DNA of 33,210 bases from contig JAEEZC010000293.1 in the NCBI GenBank assembly GCA_016288465.1, positions 1 to 33,210 on the forward strand. The letters run 5' to 3'. The notes below the pieces were generated by a model. That model did not search any database and was not told the DNA's origin. It was given only the letters and a program-made list of their open reading frames with translations. The DNA comes from Verrucomicrobiota bacterium. GTDB taxonomy: Bacteria; Verrucomicrobiota; Kiritimatiellia; RFP12; UBA1067. This document shows, in pieces, positions 8,174 to 32,262 of this stretch; position 1 is the stretch's first letter; every line of letters begins with the position of its first letter. Both the position numbers and the translations under genes were made by a program.

Positions 8174-9365
8174 TGGTTGTTCCTCCTATCACAACAAAAG
8201 CGGGAAGTCCGCGCAGCCAGCCAAAACCAGGGACTCGCCTAAGCTCCGAGAGGTCCTCTGCCTGAAGTCGCAGCACCGTGAACGACTCCAGCTCCGCCTT
8301 TACGCGAGGCTCGTCCATCACTCTTTCCATCGCCGTGCAGTTCTTGCACCAAGTGGCCCAGCAGTCGACAAGCACCGGCTTCGAGGACGATTCAAGCCCT
8401 TTGAGGACTTCCGATATCGTGGCGGGCGTTGCGTCCGCGGCAATGTCCGAAGTCTTCGAAAAGCCGATCCAGGCGATGCGACCGTACCATGCAGCCAGCG
8501 CGAGGACAGCGGCGGACGTCACCCACCTCACGACGCGCATCCAGGCACCGGGCTTCGGAAGCACGCGCAGGCCAGCGCCGAGGAAAGGCCAGGGAAGCGC
8601 CATTCCGACGCCAAAGGCGAACGGAAGCGCGAGCGCCCCTGCGGCGCCGTCGGCGTACATCCTCGCGGAGAGCACGAGCACGCCTACCAGGACTGGAGCG
8701 ACGCACGCGCCGGCGAGGACCGCGCTTACGGCGCCCATGGCGAAGGCGAAAAGCCAGGGGAGACCGGGCGGCATGCTTCTCGCGATTGCGCCGCGGTGCT
8801 TCGAGAAGTCCAGATGGAACACGCCGCCTGCGGCAAGAGCGAGCGCCGCGAACAGCACGCACGCGCCGGCGTTGAACCATGGGCTGCCCTGAATCTCGCC
8901 GAACGCCATGCCGCCAGTCGTTGCAAGCGCGCCCATCGCACCATATGCGGCTATGATGCCCAGAGAATACATGGCGCCGCGCGCGGCAGATCTGCCAATG
9001 ATCATCAGATTCACAGGAACCATCGGAAGGACGCATGGCGTGAGGTTCATCGCAAGCCCGCCGAGAACCGCCGCGAGAACTGCGGCCCAGAATGCGGCGG
9101 ACGAAGCTGGCAAGGCGGGCGGCTCGGCCGCCGATTCGCCGCGCAAGAAGGCAATGAACTCATCGGCGCCCATGTAGCCCTGGGCGACGCGCCATCCCCT
9201 GTTTGGCTCTTCGGAACTTGCAACGGCAGGCGGTGTGTCTTCCACGATTCTGCACACGCCGTCAACGCACTCGTACTTTACGCCTCCAGCAAGTTCGCCG
9301 TCCGCAGAGGCGGGAACGGCAAAGGCCATCGTCAAGGCCGCGAGCAGCACGAGCCTTGCGCTCAT
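8163..9365 (-). CDS. DsbD-like membrane thiol reductase with short thioredoxin domain
   Basis: DsbD/CcdA-type proteins carry electrons from cytoplasmic thioredoxin across the membrane. The 400-aa protein has a signal peptide, a short periplasmic stretch with a CVDGVC pair, about six to eight membrane segments with the paired redox cysteines NLTPCVLPMVP and ACVAPVLVG, and a C-terminal thioredoxin-like domain with WCKNC. There is no full DsbD-alpha domain. The thioredoxin domain ends just after the cis-proline strand (LPAFVVIGG), lacking the last strand and helix normally present, so it looks truncated. The start at 9365 overlaps the ispH-uppS stop by one base (TGATG). Roles in cytochrome or envelope disulfide chemistry are possible. 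Confidence 0.83.
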   Translation of the reverse strand: MSARLVLLAALTMAFAVPASADGELAGGVKYECVDGVCRIVEDTPPAVASSEEPNRGWRVAQGYMGADEFIAFLRGESAAEPPALPASSAAFWAAVLAAVLGGLAMNLTPCVLPMVPVNLMIIGRSAARGAMYSLGIIAAYGAMGALATTGGMAFGEIQGSPWFNAGACVLFAALALAAGGVFHLDFSKHRGAIARSMPPGLPWLFAFAMGAVSAVLAGACVAPVLVGVLVLSARMYADGAAGALALPFAFGVGMALPWPFLGAGLRVLPKPGAWMRVVRWVTSAAVLALAAWYGRIAWIGFSKTSDIAADATPATISEVLKGLESSSKPVLVDCWATWCKNCTAMERVMDEPRVKAELESFTVLRLQAEDLSELRRVPGFGWLRGLPAFVVIGGTTNEN

Positions 9366-10894
9366 CACACGCCCCCCATGCGCCGATGACGAGACGCGTA
9401 TGATTCCAGGGCCTTGTCGAGGTCCGACTCGGAGAAGTCGGGCCAGAGGACGTCTGTAAAGTAGTATTCGCTGTAGGCGGACTCCCAAAGAAGGAAGTTC
9501 GACGTGCGCAGCTCGCCGCTCGTGCGTATCACTAGATCCGGGTCGGGGACGTCGGGTGCGTAGAGGCAGCGGGAAAACGTCTCTTCGGTCATCGGCTCGC
9601 CTCTTCGAATCGCCTCGTTCACGGCATCGACGATCTCCGCTCGCCCTCCGTATGAAATTGCGACGATGAACTGCCTCTCGAAGCCGGCGGTCCTGCGTTC
9701 AAGCTCCTCGATGGTGGCGAGGAGTCCCTTGGAAAGGTCGCCGCGGCGGCCGATCATCCTGAACCTCACCTTTTTCCTGACGAAGTCGCCGCCCTTCAGC
9801 TTGAGCATGCGCGCGAAGAGCGACATCAACCCGTCGACTTCAGCCTTCGGACGCTTCCAGTTCTCTGTCGAAAAGGCGTAGACCGTCAGATACGCTATGC
9901 CCCTGTCGCCGCACCATTCCAGCACCTTCGAGAGCGTTTCGGCTCCGGCGACATGCCCTTCGCCGCGCTTCTTGCCGCGCTGCGAAGCCCAGCGCCCGTT
10001 GCCGTCCATCACAATCGCAACGTGCCGCGGGACGTTGCGCAGATACCGTACGGCCTCGGTGAAGAAGCGCTCAGGCGTTGAGGCTCCGCTTGTGACGCCA
10101 AGGACGTCAACGCCGTTGAGGTCGAGGGCGCGAACCTCGTCCATTGTCCCGGCCAGGAGAGAGCCCGTCCCGCACTCGCGGGCTATCTCGGCGAGACGTC
10201 TGCAGTTTGACGAAGAGGGCGAGCCAAGAACAAGCACACGCGATCCCTCTCCGTGATGCGTCTTCGCAAAGCGCCGCACGGCGTTCTGTCTGTCCTTTGT
10301 CGCGGCGCACACGTCGGCGGACGACTCGATGTCGTACTTGCCGCGCAAGACGGCCACACAGCGCTCGACGTCGTCGGCGTTCATGGTCGTCTGAGCGACG
10401 ACGCCGATCTTCCGCCCCTCAAGACCCTTTGCCGGACCGCTTCCGCCCGGCCAGTCCGAAAGAAGTCCGTTCTCGGGGACGAGCGCGCGACCGTCCGGAA
10501 GATCGAGAACCTCGTCGGCAATTCCTCGCGCCTCCACATGCGCGGGATCGCAGATTATCGCGACAGGCATGCCGCGCTTCGCGAACGACCTTGCGGCGCG
10601 ATGCACTCTGTCGACGAACGGGCAGGTGGCGTCGACAACCGTAAGCTCTCGGTCCTTCGCCGCGCGGCGGACGCTGGGCCCGACACCGTGAGCCGAGAAG
10701 ACGACGGTTCCGCCCTTCGGCACGTCTTCCACGCTCTCGACGAACTTGAAGCGGAGATCCCTGAGATCGCCTGTGATGATCTCGTTGTGGACAAGGCCGT
10801 GAAGGCAGTAAACGTCACGAAGCCTAAGCGCCCTGGCAACTGCGGCGTCCACTCCGGCGCAAAGTCCGTGCGGCTCTATGATCTCCACCGTCAT
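9365..10894 (-). CDS. ispH-uppS: Fused IspH (HMBPP reductase) - UppS (undecaprenyl diphosphate synthase)
   Basis: A single uninterrupted 509-aa frame contains two complete enzymes. Residues 1-283 are IspH, the last step of the MEP pathway, with the three [4Fe-4S] cysteines C12, C91 and C196, the HNEI segment (H36), HVEARG (H119, E121), QTT (168-170) and SSSNCRRL near 227-234. Residues 286-509 are UppS, the cis-prenyltransferase that makes the lipid carrier for peptidoglycan, with MDGNGRWA (catalytic D297), TENWKRP, and the C-terminal DLVIRTSGELRTSNFLLWESAYSEYYFTD block in pieces typical of the family. There is almost no linker. It lies 27 nt behind a RhaT-family gene and overlaps the dsbD-like gene by one base. 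IspH makes IPP, which UppS consumes. Confidence 0.93.
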   Translation of the reverse strand: MTVEIIEPHGLCAGVDAAVARALRLRDVYCLHGLVHNEIITGDLRDLRFKFVESVEDVPKGGTVVFSAHGVGPSVRRAAKDRELTVVDATCPFVDRVHRAARSFAKRGMPVAIICDPAHVEARGIADEVLDLPDGRALVPENGLLSDWPGGSGPAKGLEGRKIGVVAQTTMNADDVERCVAVLRGKYDIESSADVCAATKDRQNAVRRFAKTHHGEGSRVLVLGSPSSSNCRRLAEIARECGTGSLLAGTMDEVRALDLNGVDVLGVTSGASTPERFFTEAVRYLRNVPRHVAIVMDGNGRWASQRGKKRGEGHVAGAETLSKVLEWCGDRGIAYLTVYAFSTENWKRPKAEVDGLMSLFARMLKLKGGDFVRKKVRFRMIGRRGDLSKGLLATIEELERRTAGFERQFIVAISYGGRAEIVDAVNEAIRRGEPMTEETFSRCLYAPDVPDPDLVIRTSGELRTSNFLLWESAYSEYYFTDVLWPDFSESDLDKALESYASRHRRMGGV

Positions 10895-23802: not shown

Positions 23803-24087
23803 TCAGACCCAGAGCTTCTCCAGCGCGTAGTATGCGCGCGCCTCCGGCGAAAAGACGTGCACGACCACGTCCACGTAGTCCGCGACTATCCATCCGCTCT
23901 CGGGATCGCCCGACACGCGATACGCCTTCTTCGGCAGCGCCTTGACAAGCGCCTTGAGGTGCGGCGCCGCCGCGCCGGTCGCGACCACGAAGTAGTCGGC
24001 GATTCCGGACTTCCCGCGCACGTCGTACGCCTTCACGTCAATGCCCTTGGCGTCGACAAGGGCCTGAACGATGTCGTCAGTAGTCAT
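23803..24087 (-). CDS. rsfS: Ribosomal silencing factor RsfS
   Basis: RsfS binds L14 of the 50S subunit and blocks joining with 30S when cells are starved. The 94-aa protein carries the DUF143 pattern: GIDVKAYDVRGKSGIADYFVVATG, SGWIVADYVDVVVHVFSPEAR and YYALEKLW at the C-terminus. Its length is close to the core domain (E. coli 105 aa). The start overlaps the glgA stop (ATGA), so it is coupled to glycogen synthesis in expression. Confidence 0.93.
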   Translation of the reverse strand: MTTDDIVQALVDAKGIDVKAYDVRGKSGIADYFVVATGAAAPHLKALVKALPKKAYRVSGDPESGWIVADYVDVVVHVFSPEARAYYALEKLWV

Positions 24088-25625
24088 TTGCCTCCGTGCT
24101 CCCTCTGCCCGTCTTCGGAGCCCTCGCCCCTAACAAGAGGACGGTCAAGCATCCTCTCGTAAAGGTTGATGTACTCCTGAGCGCAGGCGTGGTGGTTGAA
24201 GCGGTTGCGCGACTCCGTCATGATGCGCGCGATCTCTCTCGCGCGCACGTCGGCGCCAAGGTGGAAGAACTCCATCGCCTGGTCCATCGCCCACATCAGC
24301 CCGTTGGAGTCGTACGTGTCGAAGACGAAGCCGTTGCCGACGCTCGCGTTCCAGTCGAGCGGCTCGACGGTGTCGTGCAGCCCGCCGGTGTTGTGGGCGA
24401 CTGCGAGCGAACCGTAGATCGGCGCCTGCATCTGCGGCAGGCCGCAGGGCTCGAACAGCGACGGCATGAGCGTGAAGTCGCTCGCCGCGAAGCCCAGCTG
24501 CGAAAGGCGCCCGTCGAAGTTGCGCACGCCAAGCCTCCCCTCGATGCCGTGGAACTCGCGTATGTCCCAGAAAGGCTGCTGGTACGGACCGTTCGCGATG
24601 ACCGCGATCTGCGCGTCCGGATGCTTCTCCAGGAACTTGTACGTGATGTCCGTAAGGAGCTGAGGCCCCTTCTGCACCGGGTCGAGCCTGCTCGGCCAGA
24701 AGAAGAGCGCCCTGTCGGCGTCCTCGTCTAGCCCAAGCGCGTGCTGCAGCGCGAGCTTGTTCTGGCGCTTCATCTCGCGATGGTTCGCAGGACCGTACTT
24801 GAACGGTATCTTGTCGTCGGTCGCCGGGTCGTCCGAAGGATCGGGCGCGTTCAGGATGCCCGCAGCGCAGCCGGCGTTGAACTTGTTCCTTATCTCTCCG
24901 CGTATCGAGTCCGGTATGAACGAGTGCCAGCCGTTGACGATCTCCTTGAGGAACGTCGGCGAGACGGTGTTGATGAAGTGCGCCGCGAAGCAGCCCGACG
25001 CCTGAAGGTCAATCGCGTTCCTGTCGCGCGACTCCTCGTAGTTGTACGGCGGGTAGTCGTAGTAGAGGTGCATCCAGAACTCCGCCGCGTCGATCCCCGC
25101 GTCCTCGACGGCGGCGAGGTTCAGCTTCTGCGTGTGGATGTTGTGCACCGTGAAAAGGCAGGGTATGCCCATGCGCCGCGACGCCGCGGGTATGAGGCCC
25201 GTCATCCAGTCGTTGCAGTGTATGAGATCCGGCTGCACGTGCGGGATGATGTTGTTTATCACCTCGCGCTGGAACGCGAGCGCCAGCTTGACGTTGCCGT
25301 TGCCGCGGTCGTAGACGGTGTCGCGGTAGTAGAAGCAGCGGTCTTCGGCCAGGTGTATCCGCTCGTCGGAAAGATGGCTCTTGTACTTGCGCAGCTCGTT
25401 GGCGACAAGCTGCGCCGTCTCAACGTGGAACATCCGCCGGTAGTGCGGCAGCGCGACGTGCACGTCCGCCCCGAGCTCGAAAAGAGCCGAGACGAGCGAC
25501 GCGGAGACGTCCGCCATGCCGCCGGCCTTCGCGGACATCTTGCCCGCGAGGTTGCCCATGCCGTCCGGCAGATACGTGATCTCCGGAGTGACTATCAGTA
25601 TTCTCGGATTCCTAGCCTTCGCCAT
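24084..25625 (-). CDS. glgA: Glycogen synthase (GT5)
   Basis: GT5 glycosyltransferase that extends alpha-1,4-glucan from ADP- or UDP-glucose. The 513-aa protein has the N-terminal donor loop KAGGMADV (K33, normally KxGGLxDV), HCNDWMTGLIP, TVHNIHTQK, and in the C-terminal domain PSRLDPVQKGPQLL and LMPSLFEPCGLPQMQ with the catalytic Glu. The true start is ATG 25625; the frame stays open far upstream (to 27194) only because it runs antiparallel in frame behind the oadA gene. AGGGG lies 9 nt before the start. It is 14 nt after the carboxyltransferase gene. Confidence 0.93.
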   Translation of the reverse strand: MAKARNPRILIVTPEITYLPDGMGNLAGKMSAKAGGMADVSASLVSALFELGADVHVALPHYRRMFHVETAQLVANELRKYKSHLSDERIHLAEDRCFYYRDTVYDRGNGNVKLALAFQREVINNIIPHVQPDLIHCNDWMTGLIPAASRRMGIPCLFTVHNIHTQKLNLAAVEDAGIDAAEFWMHLYYDYPPYNYEESRDRNAIDLQASGCFAAHFINTVSPTFLKEIVNGWHSFIPDSIRGEIRNKFNAGCAAGILNAPDPSDDPATDDKIPFKYGPANHREMKRQNKLALQHALGLDEDADRALFFWPSRLDPVQKGPQLLTDITYKFLEKHPDAQIAVIANGPYQQPFWDIREFHGIEGRLGVRNFDGRLSQLGFAASDFTLMPSLFEPCGLPQMQAPIYGSLAVAHNTGGLHDTVEPLDWNASVGNGFVFDTYDSNGLMWAMDQAMEFFHLGADVRAREIARIMTESRNRFNHHACAQEYINLYERMLDRPLVRGEGSEDGQREHGGK

Positions 25626-25639
25626 ATCCAGCAGCCCCC

Positions 25640-27337
25640 TCACCCTATGCTCGCGACAGCCTGCCCCTTCTTGACGGCCTCGCCGTGCCCAACAAGAAAC
25701 GTGATTTTCCCTGACGCCGGCGCCTTGACCGGATTGAAGAGCTTCATCGCCTCGACGACGCACACCGCGTCGCCCGCCTTGACCGCGGCGCCGTCGGCCG
25801 CCATCGGCGGTTTGCCAGGCGCGTCGCTGCGGAAGAACGTTCCGTTTAGCGGCGCCAGCACCTGCGTCCCGGAAGCCGCCTGCGCGTTCGCAGGGCCGGA
25901 CGCCTTGGCAGACGGCGCCGCCCCCGCAGCCGGAGCCGCGGACGCCGACGAAACGGTCTCTTCGGAATCGGCCGGTATCGGTCCGCCCTCCTTGCGCCAC
26001 TTGAAGTAGCCGAGCGCCACTTCGGGGAAGAGCGCGTAGGAGAGGATGTCCTCCTCCGCCTCGATCGTGCCGGCCGGCAGCTCGGACGCCGCCGCGACAA
26101 GCCCCGGCTTCAGGAGGTCCGCCGGACGGCAGTCGATCGGCTTCAGCTTGCCGCACAGCTTCTTCCTCAGCTTCGGCTCGATCGGCGCGGGCGTGCGGCC
26201 GTAGTAGCCGGCCGCATAGCGCCTCGTCTCGTCCGTGACCATCGAATAGCGCTTGCCGGAAAGCACGTTGAGAACGGACTGCACTCCGACTATCTGCGAC
26301 GTAGGCGTGACAAGCGGAGGATATCCGAGGTCCGCGCGCGTCTTGGGCAGCTCCTCGAGCACCTCTGGCAGACGGTCGAGCGCGTCCTGCTGCGCGAGCT
26401 GCGAGCGGAGGTTCGAGATCATTCCGCCGGGTATCGCGTGGACGAGGACGCCCGCGTCCACCGGCTCCACCTTGGCGCACGACGCCGGCTGGCGCTTCGC
26501 CTTCAGGGCCTTGAAGTGCGCGTTGATCTTCGCAAGCGCCTCCTGGTCGAGCCCCGTGTCGAAGCCGCAGCTTTCGAGAATCGCCTTTATCGACTCCGTT
26601 GGCGGCTGTGACGAGAACGAGGAAAGCGCCGATATCGCGCAGTCGAGGCATCCGGCGCCGGCTTCCGCCGCCGCAAGGTACATCGCGGACGCCATGCCGC
26701 TCGTCATGTGCGAGTGGATCTGTATCGGCATGTCGGGCATCGCCTTCGCGAGCGCGGCGACAAGCTCGCGCGCGGCGCCAGGCGTGAGTATGCCGGCCAT
26801 GTCCTTGATCGCGATGGAGTCGACGCCCATGGACTCCTGCTCCTTCGCGAGCTTGACGTAGTTCTCGACTGTGTGCACGGGCGACGTCGTGTAGCAGATC
26901 GTGCCCTGCGCATGGCCGCCGTACTTCTTGACGCACTTCACCGCCGTCTCGAGGTTGCGCGGGTCGTTGAGCGCGTCGAACACCCTGAAGATGTCCATCC
27001 CGTTCTCGCAGGCGAGCGCCGCGAAGCGCTCGACGATGTCGTCGGGATAGTGCTTGTAGCCAAGGATGTTCTGCCCGCGGAAGAGCATCTGCAGCGGCGT
27101 CTTCCTGCAGACCTTCTTGATTCTCCGCAGCCGCTCCCACGGATTCTCCCGCAGGAAGCGCATGCACACGTCGAACGTCGCGCCGCCCCAGCATTCCAGC
27201 GAATAGAAGCCGGCCCCGTCGATCGTCTCGGCTATCTCGAGAATGTCGTCAGTCCGCATCCGTGTCGCCCAGAGAGACTGGTGCGCGTCCCGCAGAGTCG
27301 TGTCAGTAATGCGAATCTTCGTCTTGCCACTTTTCAT
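25640..27337 (-). CDS. oadA: Biotin-dependent carboxyltransferase/biotinyl subunit (OadA/PycB type)
   Basis: This family either decarboxylates oxaloacetate at a sodium pump (OadA) or carboxylates pyruvate (PycB). The 565-aa protein has the HMGL-like barrel with TDTTLRDAHQS (residues 11-21), AIKDMAGIL with the lysine expected to be carbamylated, and IQIHSHMTSGMA with the metal-binding HxH. A conserved PYC-OADA middle region follows, then an Ala/Pro/Ser-rich linker (about 480-500) and a lipoyl/biotinyl domain with EAMKL, where the lysine is biotinylated. No oadB/oadG or biotin carboxylase is in the window, so the direction of the reaction cannot be decided. The start lies 3 nt after the predicted transcription start. 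Confidence 0.88.
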   Translation of the reverse strand: MKSGKTKIRITDTTLRDAHQSLWATRMRTDDILEIAETIDGAGFYSLECWGGATFDVCMRFLRENPWERLRRIKKVCRKTPLQMLFRGQNILGYKHYPDDIVERFAALACENGMDIFRVFDALNDPRNLETAVKCVKKYGGHAQGTICYTTSPVHTVENYVKLAKEQESMGVDSIAIKDMAGILTPGAARELVAALAKAMPDMPIQIHSHMTSGMASAMYLAAAEAGAGCLDCAISALSSFSSQPPTESIKAILESCGFDTGLDQEALAKINAHFKALKAKRQPASCAKVEPVDAGVLVHAIPGGMISNLRSQLAQQDALDRLPEVLEELPKTRADLGYPPLVTPTSQIVGVQSVLNVLSGKRYSMVTDETRRYAAGYYGRTPAPIEPKLRKKLCGKLKPIDCRPADLLKPGLVAAASELPAGTIEAEEDILSYALFPEVALGYFKWRKEGGPIPADSEETVSSASAAPAAGAAPSAKASGPANAQAASGTQVLAPLNGTFFRSDAPGKPPMAADGAAVKAGDAVCVVEAMKLFNPVKAPASGKITFLVGHGEAVKKGQAVASIG

Positions 27338-28001: not shown

Positions 28002-29033
28002 TCATCTTTGCACGCGACCCGATGCGTTGCCGGCGGCAAGCGACTCGACCTCGGCAACCGACACGAGATTGAAATCGTGTTCGATCGAATGCTTGAGGCA
28101 GCTTGCCGCGACGGCGAAGTCGATGGCCTGCTGCTGCGGTCTGCCTGTCGCAAGCGCGTATATGAGCGCGCCGCCAAACGAGTCTCCGCCGCCTACGCGA
28201 TCGACGATGCTGATGTCGTATCCCGGCGAGAAACACGCCTTTCTGGTCTTGGCGTCGTAGAGCACTCCTGCCCAGAGGTTCCGCGACGCGGAAAGCGACG
28301 TCCTGAGCGTTATCGCCACTTTCCCGACGCCGAACCTCGCGACAAGCTGTTCGGCGACGGAAACGTATCCCGCCTTGTCCAGCTTCCCCGATTCGACGTC
28401 CGTCCCCTTCGCCTTGATGCCGAAGACATCCGCCGCGTCCGCTTCATTCGCAATGAGGACGTCAACATACGGCACAAGCTTCGCCATGCATTTCCCGGCT
28501 TCGGCTTTCGTCCACAGCTTGCCGCGGTAGTTGAGGTCGCACGAAACCGCGATCCTCTTTTCCTTGCACACCTTGAGCGCATCAAGGCAGATGGCGGGGA
28601 GTTCGCCGCCGAGCGCCGGCGTTATGCCGGTGAAGTGGAACCATTTCGCGCCCTTGAGAATCTTCGGCCAGTCGAAGTCGGCGCGCCTGGCGAGGGCAAT
28701 GGACGAGGCCGCCCTGTCGTAGACGACCTTCGACGGACGCTGGGAGGCGCCCTTTTCGACGAAGTAGAGCCCTAGGCGCGGGCCGCCCCAGACGATGTCG
28801 GACGTGTCCACGCCAAAGCGCCTTACCGCGTTCCGCGCCGCTTCGCCAAGCGGATTCTCGGGCAGCTTGGTCACAAAAGAGGCGTCCAGCCCGTAGTTTG
28901 CGAGAGACACGGCGACGTTCGCCTCGCCTCCCGCATAGCTCGCCTCGAACCTCTCGGCCTGCACGAAGCGCTGGTATCCCTCGGGATTGAGGCGCATCAT
29001 GATTTCACCGAATGTCACTGTCTTGATCTTCAT
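28002..29033 (-). CDS. kdgK: 2-keto-3-deoxygluconate (KDG) kinase, PfkB family
   Basis: Phosphorylates KDG to KDPG with ATP. The 343-aa ribokinase-fold protein has FGEIMMRLNPEG at the N-terminus (typical of KDG kinases), the PfkB first signature around GGEANVAVSLANYGL (35-49), CDLNYRGKLW (165-174), and the catalytic GGGDSFGGAL with D284 as base. It is the third gene of the transporter-eda-kdgK unit, and its product makes the substrate of the Eda enzyme. The intergenic leader before it is a low-complexity C/A-rich stretch. Confidence 0.9.
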   Translation of the reverse strand: MKIKTVTFGEIMMRLNPEGYQRFVQAERFEASYAGGEANVAVSLANYGLDASFVTKLPENPLGEAARNAVRRFGVDTSDIVWGGPRLGLYFVEKGASQRPSKVVYDRAASSIALARRADFDWPKILKGAKWFHFTGITPALGGELPAICLDALKVCKEKRIAVSCDLNYRGKLWTKAEAGKCMAKLVPYVDVLIANEADAADVFGIKAKGTDVESGKLDKAGYVSVAEQLVARFGVGKVAITLRTSLSASRNLWAGVLYDAKTRKACFSPGYDISIVDRVGGGDSFGGALIYALATGRPQQQAIDFAVAASCLKHSIEHDFNLVSVAEVESLAAGNASGRVQR

Positions 29034-29087: not shown

Positions 29088-29747
29088 CTAGCGGCTGGCG
29101 GAGGCGGAGCGCTCCACGAGCTGGCGGGCGACATCCTCGATCTTGCCCCATTCTCCGGCGGCGATCCACTCCTTGTTCGTGAGGTTCCCGCCGACGCCCG
29201 CGCCCACGCATCCGACGCGCATGAAGTCCGCGACGTTGTCCGGCCCGATGCCGCCGACGGCGAGAAACGGTATGTGCGAAAGCGGCGCGCGTATCGCCTT
29301 CACGTAGCCGGGGCCGAGCGAACCCGCGGGAAACACCTTTACGAAGCTCGCCCCCGCATCCCACGCGTCAACCGCCTCGGACGGCGTAAGCGCGCCAGGC
29401 ATCGCGACGAGCCCGCGGCGCACGCATTCGCGGATCAGGCCGGGATTGACGTTTGGCGTTATCATGTACTCCCCGCCCGCCTGCTCGCACATCGAGAGCT
29501 GCTCTTCGGTGAGCACCGTTCCCGCGCCTACCCTGACCTCGCCGGCGAAGCGCTCGCGTATCGCGCGAATCGCCGAAACCGTCCGTTTCCACGTCTCGGG
29601 CGCCTTCTGGTCGAAAGTCACCTCTACAAGACCAATTCCGCCTGCGGCATACGCCTCCGCAAGCCGCAGGCACGTATCCGGCTCGAAACCGCGGATGATC
29701 GCTATGATCTTCCGCTCGCGAACGACGCTCTCTATTTTCGAAGTCAT
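29088..29747 (-). CDS. eda: KDPG/KHG aldolase
   Basis: Cleaves 2-keto-3-deoxy-6-phosphogluconate to pyruvate and glyceraldehyde 3-phosphate. The 219-aa class I aldolase has LVEVTFDQ (E42), GAGTVLT, ITPNVNP and the Schiff-base lysine K137 in FVKVFPAGSLGPGY. The position of E. coli Arg49 is Asp/Gln here (VTFDQKAPETW), a form I recall from other gut anaerobes rather than a defect. The start overlaps the transporter gene stop as ATGA. Directly downstream is kdgK, completing KDG use. Confidence 0.92.
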   Translation of the reverse strand: MTSKIESVVRERKIIAIIRGFEPDTCLRLAEAYAAGGIGLVEVTFDQKAPETWKRTVSAIRAIRERFAGEVRVGAGTVLTEEQLSMCEQAGGEYMITPNVNPGLIRECVRRGLVAMPGALTPSEAVDAWDAGASFVKVFPAGSLGPGYVKAIRAPLSHIPFLAVGGIGPDNVADFMRVGCVGAGVGGNLTNKEWIAAGEWGKIEDVARQLVERSASASR

Positions 29748-31489
29748 GGCTCAACTAGGACCTTTATTACCAGCTTTTTGATTCGCCGCGGGCCGTCCAC
29801 GCTGCAGGACGGTCCGTGTGCGCCGTACGGCGGCCTGAACATTATGAACTCGCCGGGGTTGACGACGACGACGTCCATCGGCTGCTTGTAAAAGCCGATG
29901 TCCTTCTCGACGTCGAACGGCAAGGCGGCATTCGCGTCCGAAAGGCGTCCGACGCCGTACGCCTCCGCGGCGGTCAGCGGCGCCTGGATGTCGATGTACC
30001 GTCTGTGCGCCTCGATCTTCATGTCCGAAACCGGTTTGAGCTCGCATTCCTGGACAAGCGCGAACACCTTGTCGCCGTCGATCTCGTGGCGGCCGACGGC
30101 CAGCGACGGGAGATCTGCGCGCTTTAGGAACGCAAAGGCCTTCTCAAGGCGCTCGTCCCCGCGCGCATGCTTTTCGCACGACTTGATCTCGCCGCGCTCG
30201 AAATAGTCCGCGCCGCCCTTTTCGCCGCGATCCAGCAGAGCCTTTGCACCTGCCGCAGCCGTCGCTACGGCAAACGCAAGCGCGGCGGCGAGCAGCGCGT
30301 TCATAACCCACCCTGCGCAGTGCTCGCCCATGACGGACCGACGGTTGACGAGGAACAATATCGCCGCCACCGCAAGCGGAAGAACGAAGACGTTTGAAAC
30401 CTGCACCGCGACAGTCACCGTGACGGGATTCGACCCGAGCAGCGGGACGACAAGCCCCCAAAGCGCCGCGACAAGGCAGATTACGCGGAACAGGGGCGTG
30501 TTCGTCTCCATCCGCCCGTCCTTCCAGTCCCCTATCAGCAGCGGGGCGACCATCATGATCGGGAACACGGACGAAAGGCCCGCGGCGAGAACCCCGACCA
30601 TGAAGAACGACACGGCGAAACGTCCGGCGACGGGCTCCAGCGTCGCGGCGATGTCGAGAATCTTCTCCAGCCCTCTCCCATGCGCGAAGAGCGCCCCCGC
30701 CGCAACGGCCATGACAGATCCCGAGACTGCGAACATGAGCGACGCAGAGACCGCCGAATCGCGACGCTCGGTTTTCAGGTCGCCCGAGCCCCAGCCCTTC
30801 TCGCGGACGAGCAGCGGACGCGTCACGAACGTCGGCGCGGCCATCGTCGTGCCGACGAAAGCCGCAAGCATCAGAAGCGATGCGCCGCCAGACGGCGCGA
30901 GCGGACGTATCGCGCGCTTCAGCGTCGCGGCGTCGGGCCATGTCGCGAAGACGGACACCACAAACGTCAGCGCCATCAGGAACACGAAGAACGCGAGAAT
31001 CTTCTCGAAGAACGAGTAGCGCCCGACCATGAGAAGCGCATACATCGCGTCCATGATCGCGCAGGCGATCGGAAAGACCCCGCACGAAAGGCCGAACGCC
31101 TCCTTGATTGCGCCGGAGGTCAGGATCATGATGCCGCCCAGGCATGTGTACTGCCCGACGACTACGCCGATGAAGACGAGCGCGGCGACGACCCTCCCGC
31201 ACGGCATGAAGCGAACCATCCCGTGTAGCGCCGTCTCGCCCGTGACGGCGGCGAACCTCCCGTACGCGGACATCAGAACGCCGGAAAACAGGCAGCTCAG
31301 GGCCAACACCCACAAAAGCCCCAGCCCGTAGTCCGCGCCCGCCTTCGCCATCGAAGTGACAGACCCCGTGCCTATCGTGTAGCCAATGGCGAAGATGCCG
31401 GGGCCGACCGCCGCCAGCGCCCTCATCGCCTTCGTCGCAGCATCTTTTACCGTCTGCGTCACTTTGTCTTCACTTCTCCAATCTTGCAT
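29744..31489 (-). CDS. NRAMP-like transporter fused to a YhcH/NanQ-family domain
   Basis: Residues 25-415 are an NRAMP-fold permease of about eleven helices: GPGIFAIGYTIGTGSVTSMAKAG resembles NRAMP TM1, but the metal-binding DPGN is replaced by GTGS (40-43), and the TM6 MPH motif is replaced by MAAP (216-219). Metal transport is thus unlikely. Residues about 430-581 form a complete YhcH/YjgK/YiaL (DUF386, EbgC-like) domain with EAHRRYIDIQ (H495) and GAHGP (H558). The YhcH member NanQ is a sialic-acid anomerase. The fusion is uninterrupted. With eda and kdgK behind it, I infer a keto-sugar-acid permease that carries its own anomerase. The start codon lies inside a GntR operator. Confidence 0.85.
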   Translation of the reverse strand: MQDWRSEDKVTQTVKDAATKAMRALAAVGPGIFAIGYTIGTGSVTSMAKAGADYGLGLLWVLALSCLFSGVLMSAYGRFAAVTGETALHGMVRFMPCGRVVAALVFIGVVVGQYTCLGGIMILTSGAIKEAFGLSCGVFPIACAIMDAMYALLMVGRYSFFEKILAFFVFLMALTFVVSVFATWPDAATLKRAIRPLAPSGGASLLMLAAFVGTTMAAPTFVTRPLLVREKGWGSGDLKTERRDSAVSASLMFAVSGSVMAVAAGALFAHGRGLEKILDIAATLEPVAGRFAVSFFMVGVLAAGLSSVFPIMMVAPLLIGDWKDGRMETNTPLFRVICLVAALWGLVVPLLGSNPVTVTVAVQVSNVFVLPLAVAAILFLVNRRSVMGEHCAGWVMNALLAAALAFAVATAAAGAKALLDRGEKGGADYFERGEIKSCEKHARGDERLEKAFAFLKRADLPSLAVGRHEIDGDKVFALVQECELKPVSDMKIEAHRRYIDIQAPLTAAEAYGVGRLSDANAALPFDVEKDIGFYKQPMDVVVVNPGEFIMFRPPYGAHGPSCSVDGPRRIKKLVIKVLVEP

Positions 31490-31569: not shown

Positions 31570-32262
31570 ATGAGGAAAAGACGGCACACCGACAAGCTCG
31601 ACGAACGGGCGTACGAATTCGTGTCAGGGCTGCTTGCGCGCGGAGAGCTGAAACCGGGGCAGAAGCTTTCCGAACCGTCGCTGGCCAAAGCCTGCGGCGT
31701 CAGCCGCACGCCCATGCGCGAAGCGGTGCGGCGTCTCATCACGGAAGGCGTGCTCAACCAGATACCGAAGTCCGGCACGTACGTCTGCAGCTTCAGCGAG
31801 AAAGACGTCAGCGACGCATACGACATAAGGATGGCCATCGAATCCGCGATGCTGGAGCGCGCCGTTCCGCGCCTCTCGAAATCCGACCTCTCGAAGCTCG
31901 CGGTCAGCTGCGAGAGGATGCACAAGGCGATCCACGCGATGAGGCGCGCCAAAATGACGATAATGACGGGAAAGCCGGAATCGGACTTTCTCGCAGCGGA
32001 CATCGACTTCCACCTTCTGCTCCTGCGGGCGTCGGGGAACGCCCTCGCCGAGCAGATAATCGCCAACGCCTACCGCCGCAACCAGTTCTTCGGCACGCAC
32101 TCCCACCAGCGCACCCTTCTCCACGTCTCTCTGGCGTGGCGGTACCACAGCGAGATCCTCAAGGCCTGCCGCGCGGGCGACACGGCCTTGGCAGTCTATT
32201 GGATCAAAAGGCACATCGCAAGGTCGGAGCGAGACGCGTTGATGCCGCTTTCGCGCATGTAG
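31570..32262 (+). CDS. GntR-family (FadR/FCD) transcriptional regulator
   Basis: The 230-aa protein has an N-terminal winged helix-turn-helix (about 10-75: LKPGQKLSEPSLAKACGVSRTPMREAV in parts, GVLNQIPKSGTYV) and a C-terminal FCD ligand-binding domain (about 80-220: MAIESAMLERAV, ADIDFHLLLLRASGN with a likely metal-binding His, AWRYHSEILKACRAGD). FCD regulators commonly bind sugar acids such as hexuronates. It is divergent from the transporter operon and the two operators between them suit autoregulation and repression. The likely inducer is the imported keto-sugar acid. It starts leaderless at 31570. Confidence 0.92.
   Translation: MRKRRHTDKLDERAYEFVSGLLARGELKPGQKLSEPSLAKACGVSRTPMREAVRRLITEGVLNQIPKSGTYVCSFSEKDVSDAYDIRMAIESAMLERAVPRLSKSDLSKLAVSCERMHKAIHAMRRAKMTIMTGKPESDFLAADIDFHLLLLRASGNALAEQIIANAYRRNQFFGTHSHQRTLLHVSLAWRYHSEILKACRAGDTALAVYWIKRHIARSERDALMPLSRM

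What the first reader, a model, noticed from the sequence alone, without database searches (positions are those of the whole stretch)
29744..31489. NRAMP-fold permease without metal ligands, fused to a YhcH/NanQ anomerase-type domain
Seen: TM1 DPGN is GTGS and the TM6 MPH motif is MAAP, the positions that bind divalent metal in NRAMP proteins; a whole YhcH domain with conserved histidines H495 and H558 follows in the same frame. Known: NanQ/YhcH speeds anomerisation of sialic acid. Inference: this is a sugar-acid transporter that delivers its substrate to its own anomerase. I know of no description of such a coupled protein; it is the best candidate for an undescribed system here.
Basis: partly seen in the sequence, partly recalled or inferred. 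Interest (0 to 1): 0.8.

Follow-up and report, generated by a model that had tools for sequence, protein, structure and literature searches.

The report
Sugar-acid permease carrying its own anomerase
A bacterial membrane protein from a family known for importing metals, but lacking the key metal-binding residues, is fused to a sugar-ring-opening enzyme domain and sits in a sugar-acid operon; it belongs to a widespread branch, found also in about a tenth of complete E. coli genomes, that probably imports sugar acids or other organic acids although databases call it a metal transporter.

Summary
The 581-aa gene at 29744-31489(-) joins a complete NRAMP domain (Pfam E 6e-52) to a complete YhcH/DUF386 domain (E 1e-31) in one open frame. 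TM1 DPGN is GTGS and the TM6 MPH position is MAA; the TM6 methionine ligand is kept. The transporter belongs to a well-supported clade (100/99) with invariant IGTGS in TM1, separate from MntH and from the Mg2+-type NRMTs. The clade is found in the window's phylum, a Bacteroidales MAG and 546 of 5,426 E. coli genomes. Its genes sit beside 2-keto-3-deoxy-sugar-acid aldolases, KDG-type kinases, glucuronate genes or (E. coli) CoA-transferase genes; none of the sugar-acid and glycan markers was found beside 21 other NRAMPs. Organic-acid import is therefore more likely than metal import. Exported DUF386 proteins exist in the same genus. The DUF386 fusion itself was found in this genome only. I favour a KDG-like sugar-acid importer with a tethered periplasmic anomerase. 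Substrate and activity are untested.

The parts
29744..31489 (-). NRAMP-DUF386 fusion gene, 581 aa
   Evidence: Single open frame; both Pfam domains over cut-off
30317..31360 (-). NRAMP domain, Pfam PF01566 (residues 44-391)
   Evidence: profile match to solved NRAMP structures, 7qia E 5e-32
31361..31372 (-). TM1 GTGS (residues 40-43) in place of DPGN
   Evidence: Invariant IGTGS in all 23 clade proteins that cover TM1, also in the E. coli member
30833..30844 (-). TM6 MAAP (residues 216-219) at the MPH position; Met kept, His lost
30245..30304 (-). Last transmembrane helix, TM11 (residues 396-415); the C-terminus after it is predicted periplasmic
   Evidence: Hydropathy over the clade; positive-inside counts
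29759..30184 (-). DUF386/YhcH domain (residues 436-577) with metal-site residues E493, H495, D500, H558
29088..29747 (-). KDPG/KHG aldolase (Eda type), ATGA overlap with the fusion gene
   Evidence: TIGR01182 170.8 bits, cut-off 156; overlap read
28002..29033 (-). PfkB sugar kinase, KDG-kinase type
   Evidence: PF00294; kinase half of NF041633 KHG/KDPG aldolase/sugar kinase fusion, E 5e-165
31570..32262 (+). Divergent GntR/FCD-type regulator
   Evidence: PF00392 and PF07729; homologue at the same operon in G450

Best explanation
The gene encodes a secondary importer of the NRAMP (SLC11) fold that carries a sugar acid, most likely 2-keto-3-deoxygluconate (KDG) or a close relative (hexuronate second), instead of a metal ion. 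Its C-terminal DUF386 domain most likely lies in the periplasm and speeds interconversion of the ring and open forms of the substrate at the outer mouth of the permease, so that the form the permease accepts is always available. The substrate is then phosphorylated by the PfkB kinase and split by the KDPG aldolase of the same operon, under a GntR-type regulator. Shown here: the fusion, the domain identities, the motif changes, the clade, the operon, the conserved context. Inferred: substrate, direction, periplasmic side, anomerase activity, functional coupling.
For: Both domains over cut-off in one frame. Clade with invariant IGTGS and 100/99 support, apart from the DPGN (MntH) and DAGG (NRMT) groups. 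Same NRAMP-aldolase-kinase order without DUF386 in G450 and G535; NRAMP with aldolase, kinase and LacI in G195 and G257; HpcH/HpaI aldolase directly upstream in G135, G470, G482 and G498; GH115, UxaC, UxuA and an RraA-like aldolase in G385. Aldolase found with a query from another locus in 9 of 24 clade loci against 0 of 21 other NRAMPs, p 0.002; any marker 14 of 24 against 0 of 21, p 1e-5. Topology: loop K+R favour N-in in 21 of 21. Exported DUF386 in the genus: signal-peptide-like N-terminus with BNR and DUF386 in G000 contig 23 and in G009. Three other clade members have a beta-propeller at the same C-terminal place. YhcH is a proven Neu5Ac anomerase (PMC8141875). Precedent for an organic substrate in the family: PxpT of C. 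glutamicum, 5-oxoproline (PMC13274462).
Against: No transport or enzyme data. The TM6 Met ligand is kept. The relative YcsG, once assigned to 5-oxoproline, raised Mn2+ in B. subtilis (PMC10448178). The YhcH paper argues that KDPG aldolase needs no anomerase and that YhcH has no effect on a mostly open keto-deoxy acid, which weakens KDG as the anomerase's substrate. The E. coli member sits with CoA-transferase and enoyl-CoA hydratase, so substrates differ across the clade. The fusion was found in one genome, an incomplete one (82.6%, 393 contigs). AlphaFold with two sequences gave no usable model (pLDDT 37). Context markers were partly drawn from clade loci, and loci are not independent.
Confidence: 0.55

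Rival explanations
1. One reading: the C-terminus is cytoplasmic, and DUF386 opens the ring of the sugar acid after import and hands it to the kinase or aldolase.
For: NanQ/YhcH is cytoplasmic in E. coli and feeds an aldolase (PMC8141875); the next genes are aldolase and kinase. A 12-helix form is known in some family members (own knowledge, e.g. human DMT1).
Against: Eleven hydrophobic segments in the clade and a positive-inside pattern with C-out in 21 of 21 proteins, matching the E. coli MntH control. PDB profile match runs to near the end of the 11-segment EleNRMT (PMC8806188).
Confidence: 0.18
2. It is a metal transporter after all. DUF386 needs Zn or Cu, and the permease supplies that metal or another divalent ion.
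For: NCBIfam Nramp_1 scores 75 bits, over its cut-off of 50; TM6 Met kept; YhcH is a Zn protein (PMC8141875); YcsG case (PMC10448178).
Against: Asp and Asn of DPGN replaced in every clade member; far below the MntH model (79 bits, cut-off 430); sugar-acid context in the clade and none in control NRAMPs.
Confidence: 0.12
3. The organic-acid transporter is real, but the fusion is an accident of one genome or of its assembly, with no functional coupling.
For: Only G000 of 115 held genomes of the family shows it; G472, the closest copy (83% identity), is cut by a contig end; no DUF386 fragment that close in G472.
Against: Domain and metal-site residues are intact; GC is even across the join; the stop/start overlap with the aldolase is tidy; an SSF symporter with a C-terminal DUF386 in G012 is an independent fusion of the same type.
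Confidence: 0.15

Closest known systems
PxpT of Corynebacterium glutamicum (NRAMP family, TCDB 2.A.55; PMC13274462)
   Same: NRAMP-family protein in a catabolic operon, 11 predicted helices, divergent GntR regulator, needed for growth on an organic acid (5-oxoproline).
NanQ/YhcH of E. coli (DUF386; PMC8141875)
   Same: Same domain family with the same metal-site residues.
   Different: Free cytoplasmic protein of the sialic acid operon; the window domain is fused to a permease, predicted periplasmic, and far below the NanQ equivalog cut-off (78 of 160 bits).
NanM of E. coli (periplasmic sialic acid mutarotase)
   Same: Proposed role: supply the transported form of the sugar acid on the periplasmic side.
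   Different: Unrelated Kelch-type protein, not fused (PMC8141875).
MntH/DraNramp and EleNRMT (metal-transporting NRAMPs)
   Same: Same family and, by homology, same fold.
   Different: They carry DPGN/MPH or DAGG/IAPW; the clade has IGTGS and VGTTM or VGTTV.
KdgT-KdgK-Eda route of E. coli (KDG uptake, kinase, aldolase; own knowledge)
   Same: Same three functions in order: importer, kinase, aldolase.
   Different: KdgT is a different transporter family and has no anomerase domain.

Membership tests
NRAMP / SLC11 (PF01566) | Profile score over the gathering cut-off across the full domain | tested here: met
   177 bits, cut-off 29.8, profile 1-354 of 357
NRAMP / SLC11 (PF01566) | Eleven or twelve helices, LeuT-type fold | tested here: met
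   11 segments; homology to solved NRAMPs along the whole length, E 5e-32. The direct AlphaFold model was unusable
NRAMP metal transporters (MntH type) | DPGN in TM1 and MPH in TM6 | tested here: not met
   GTGS and MAA; only the Met is kept
NRAMP metal transporters (MntH type) | MntH subfamily model NF001923 over its cut-off | tested here: not met
   79 bits, cut-off 430
NRAMP metal transporters (MntH type) | Divalent metal transport | not testable with these tools
   Needs an uptake assay
NRMT (Mg2+-type NRAMP) | DAGG in TM1 with IAPW in TM6; same branch of the tree | tested here: not met
   Different motif and separate branch
DUF386 / YhcH (PF04074) | Profile score over cut-off and the E-x-H, D, H metal-site residues | tested here: met
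   110 bits, cut-off 26.5; E493, H495, D500 and H558 aligned with NanQ and YiaL
NanQ N-acetylneuraminate anomerase (NF040884) | Equivalog score over cut-off | tested here: not met
   78 bits, cut-off 160
NanQ N-acetylneuraminate anomerase (NF040884) | Anomerase activity | not testable with these tools
   Needs an enzyme assay
PxpT-type organic-acid NRAMP | Sequence grouping with PxpT/YcsG | not tested
   No PxpT or YcsG sequence was retrieved

The most novel reading that the evidence does not exclude
A whole branch of the NRAMP family, marked by IGTGS in TM1 and found in several bacterial phyla including many E. coli strains, imports sugar acids and other carboxylic acids rather than metals; some members carry periplasmic domains (DUF386 anomerase or a beta-propeller) that prepare the substrate at the mouth of the transporter.
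Probability: 0.5. Interest if true: 0.8.

Novelty: new variant of a known kind. Interest (0 to 1): 0.6.

Why it matters
If true, databases name a whole transporter branch wrongly: NCBI's model calls these proteins divalent metal transporters, including in about 10% of complete E. coli genomes. It would show how the NRAMP metal site was rebuilt for an organic anion, and would give a rare case of an importer with its own ring-opening enzyme on the outer face. The unfused E. coli member makes the transport question testable in ordinary laboratory strains.

Tried and rejected
AlphaFold2 on the full protein with the one homologue whose sequence was allowed (L005): pLDDT 36.9, not used for any fold search. 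Scan of genome contigs with the whole protein gave one relative only. UxuA in the own genome: only sub-cut-off matches; UxaC is present but next to an acyltransferase gene, not in a visible uronate operon. Search for the same fusion in all 115 held family genomes: none besides G000, with G472 undecided. The 170-aa C-terminal extension of G482 and the 88-aa N-terminal extension of G431 match nothing in Pfam beyond the NRAMP domain and look like read-through frames (my reading). Idea that loss of DPGN alone proves a non-metal substrate: rejected, since NRMT and several other NRAMP branches lack it too. Sialic acid as substrate: not preferred, because the operon has KDPG aldolase and a KDG-type kinase and the domain fails the NanQ cut-off, but BNR sialidase-like neighbours in several clade loci keep a sialic-acid-like or KDO-like substrate open.

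Full report
WHAT IS THERE. The gene at 29744-31489(-) is one open frame of 581 codons. Residues 44-391 match Pfam Nramp (E 6.4e-52) and 436-577 match DUF386/YhcH (E 1.1e-31), each over its cut-off. It runs first in an operon: the KDPG aldolase at 29088-29747 starts inside its stop codon (ATGA), followed by a PfkB kinase at 28002-29033 whose best model is the kinase half of a KHG/KDPG aldolase/sugar kinase fusion (E 5e-165). A GntR/FCD regulator is divergent at 31570-32262. The genome (82.6% complete, 393 contigs) holds no other NRAMP and two other DUF386 genes.

MOTIFS. HMMER alignments to solved NRAMPs put GTGS on DPGN and MAA on MPH. Asp, Asn and the TM6 His are lost; the TM6 Met is kept. 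DUF386 keeps E493, H495, D500 and H558, all shared with NanQ and YiaL of E. coli.

THE CLADE. A profile of the NRAMP part found relatives in 20 of 338 genomes of the class; protein searches found others in the phylum, in a Bacteroidales MAG and, at 38% identity, in E. coli. All 23 proteins that cover TM1 read IGTGS, as does the E. coli one. IQ-TREE puts them in one group with 100/98 and, with E. coli added and doubtful long rows left out, 100/99, apart from the DPGN group with E. coli MntH and from the DAGG group. Several other NRAMP branches in the same phylum also lack DPGN, so motif loss alone says little.

CONTEXT. Within 5 kb of clade genes lie KDPG aldolase (G000, G195, G257, G450, G520, and also G535), KDG-type kinase, HpcH/HpaI aldolase directly upstream (G135, G470, G482, G498), and in G385 a glucuronate set: GH115, UxaC, UxuA, RraA-like aldolase. 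Using only queries from other loci, aldolases are found in 9 of 24 clade loci and 0 of 21 other NRAMPs (p 0.002), any marker in 14 of 24 against 0 of 21 (p 1e-5). The markers were chosen from clade loci and the loci are related, so the p-values are guides. BNR sialidase-like genes are also common. In E. coli the member lies between LacI regulator, CoA-transferase, enoyl-CoA hydratase and an FAD-dependent oxidoreductase, in 546 of 5,426 genomes, annotated as divalent metal transporter. The shared theme is a carboxylic acid.

TOPOLOGY. Hydropathy averaged over the clade shows 11 helices. Lys plus Arg counts in alternating loops favour N-in for 21 of 21 proteins (means 3.0, 3.0, 1.8, 4.9, 3.0, 3.1 inside against 1.0, 0.7, 1.5, 1.8, 0.4, 1.1 outside), with E. 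coli MntH behaving the same. EleNRMT has 11 segments (PMC8806188) and the clade profile aligns to residue 427 of its 438. An odd number puts the C-terminus outside. In the same genus DUF386 also occurs on proteins with signal-peptide-like starts and BNR domains (own genome contig 23; G009), and at the C-terminus of an SSF symporter in G012, where counting helices by eye also suggests an outside position. Three clade members have a beta-propeller at the same C-terminal place.

THE FUSION. Among all 115 held genomes of the family only G000 has it. G535, 69% identical, has NRAMP, stop, 16 bases, aldolase, kinase, so DUF386 was added exactly between transporter and aldolase. G472 (83% identical) is cut by its contig end. 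Composition gives no sign of a chimera.

MECHANISM. I favour a sugar-acid importer, KDG-like substrate first, with a periplasmic DUF386 that keeps ring and open forms in quick exchange at the permease mouth, as NanM is thought to do for sialic acid. The YhcH authors note that KDPG aldolase should not need an anomerase (PMC8141875), which speaks against a cytoplasmic feeding role and leaves the exact substrate open. Shown: anatomy, clade, operon, context. Inferred: substrate, side, activity, coupling.

KNOWN WORK. No paper in the library joins Nramp and YhcH. PxpT of C. glutamicum is an NRAMP-family protein required for 5-oxoproline growth (PMC13274462); YcsG is disputed as a Mn2+ importer (PMC10448178). 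An Nramp 'metal-ion transporter' is drawn in Alteromonas alginate systems beside KdgF and DehR (PMC6431674). Haloarchaeal NRAMPs of another branch precede hydantoinase/oxoprolinase genes. So organic-substrate NRAMPs have precedent; the clade, its sugar-acid setting and the fused enzyme appear undescribed in the open-access papers searched.

Noticed in passing
window 9365-10894(-): One 509-aa ORF carries a LytB/IspH domain and an undecaprenyl diphosphate synthase domain: two isoprenoid enzymes fused.
   Followed up: no
L141:7078-8307 (E. coli SK1144 chromosome): Clade member annotated as Nramp family divalent metal transporter in an operon with CoA-transferase, enoyl-CoA hydratase, FAD oxidoreductase and LacI regulator, between dnaB and qorA; in 546 of 5,426 E. 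coli genomes.
   Followed up: partly
L137, L138, L139, L140 (haloarchaeal plasmids): NRAMP genes directly upstream of hydantoinase/oxoprolinase A and B genes, TM1 motif FIGPGT: another likely organic-substrate NRAMP branch.
   Followed up: partly
L069:13513-15936(+) (genome G012): SSF sodium:solute symporter with a C-terminal DUF386 domain in one frame.
   Followed up: partly
L001:1218-2858(-) (own genome) and L015:1-2112(-) (G009): BNR sialidase-like proteins with signal-peptide-like starts fused to DUF386, in opposite domain order.
   Followed up: partly
L065, L067, L068: Clade NRAMPs fused to a C-terminal Lactonase-like beta-propeller of unknown role.
   Followed up: partly
window 24084-27194(-): Glycogen-synthase-type ORF of 1036 aa with about 530 N-terminal residues that match no Pfam family.
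   Followed up: no
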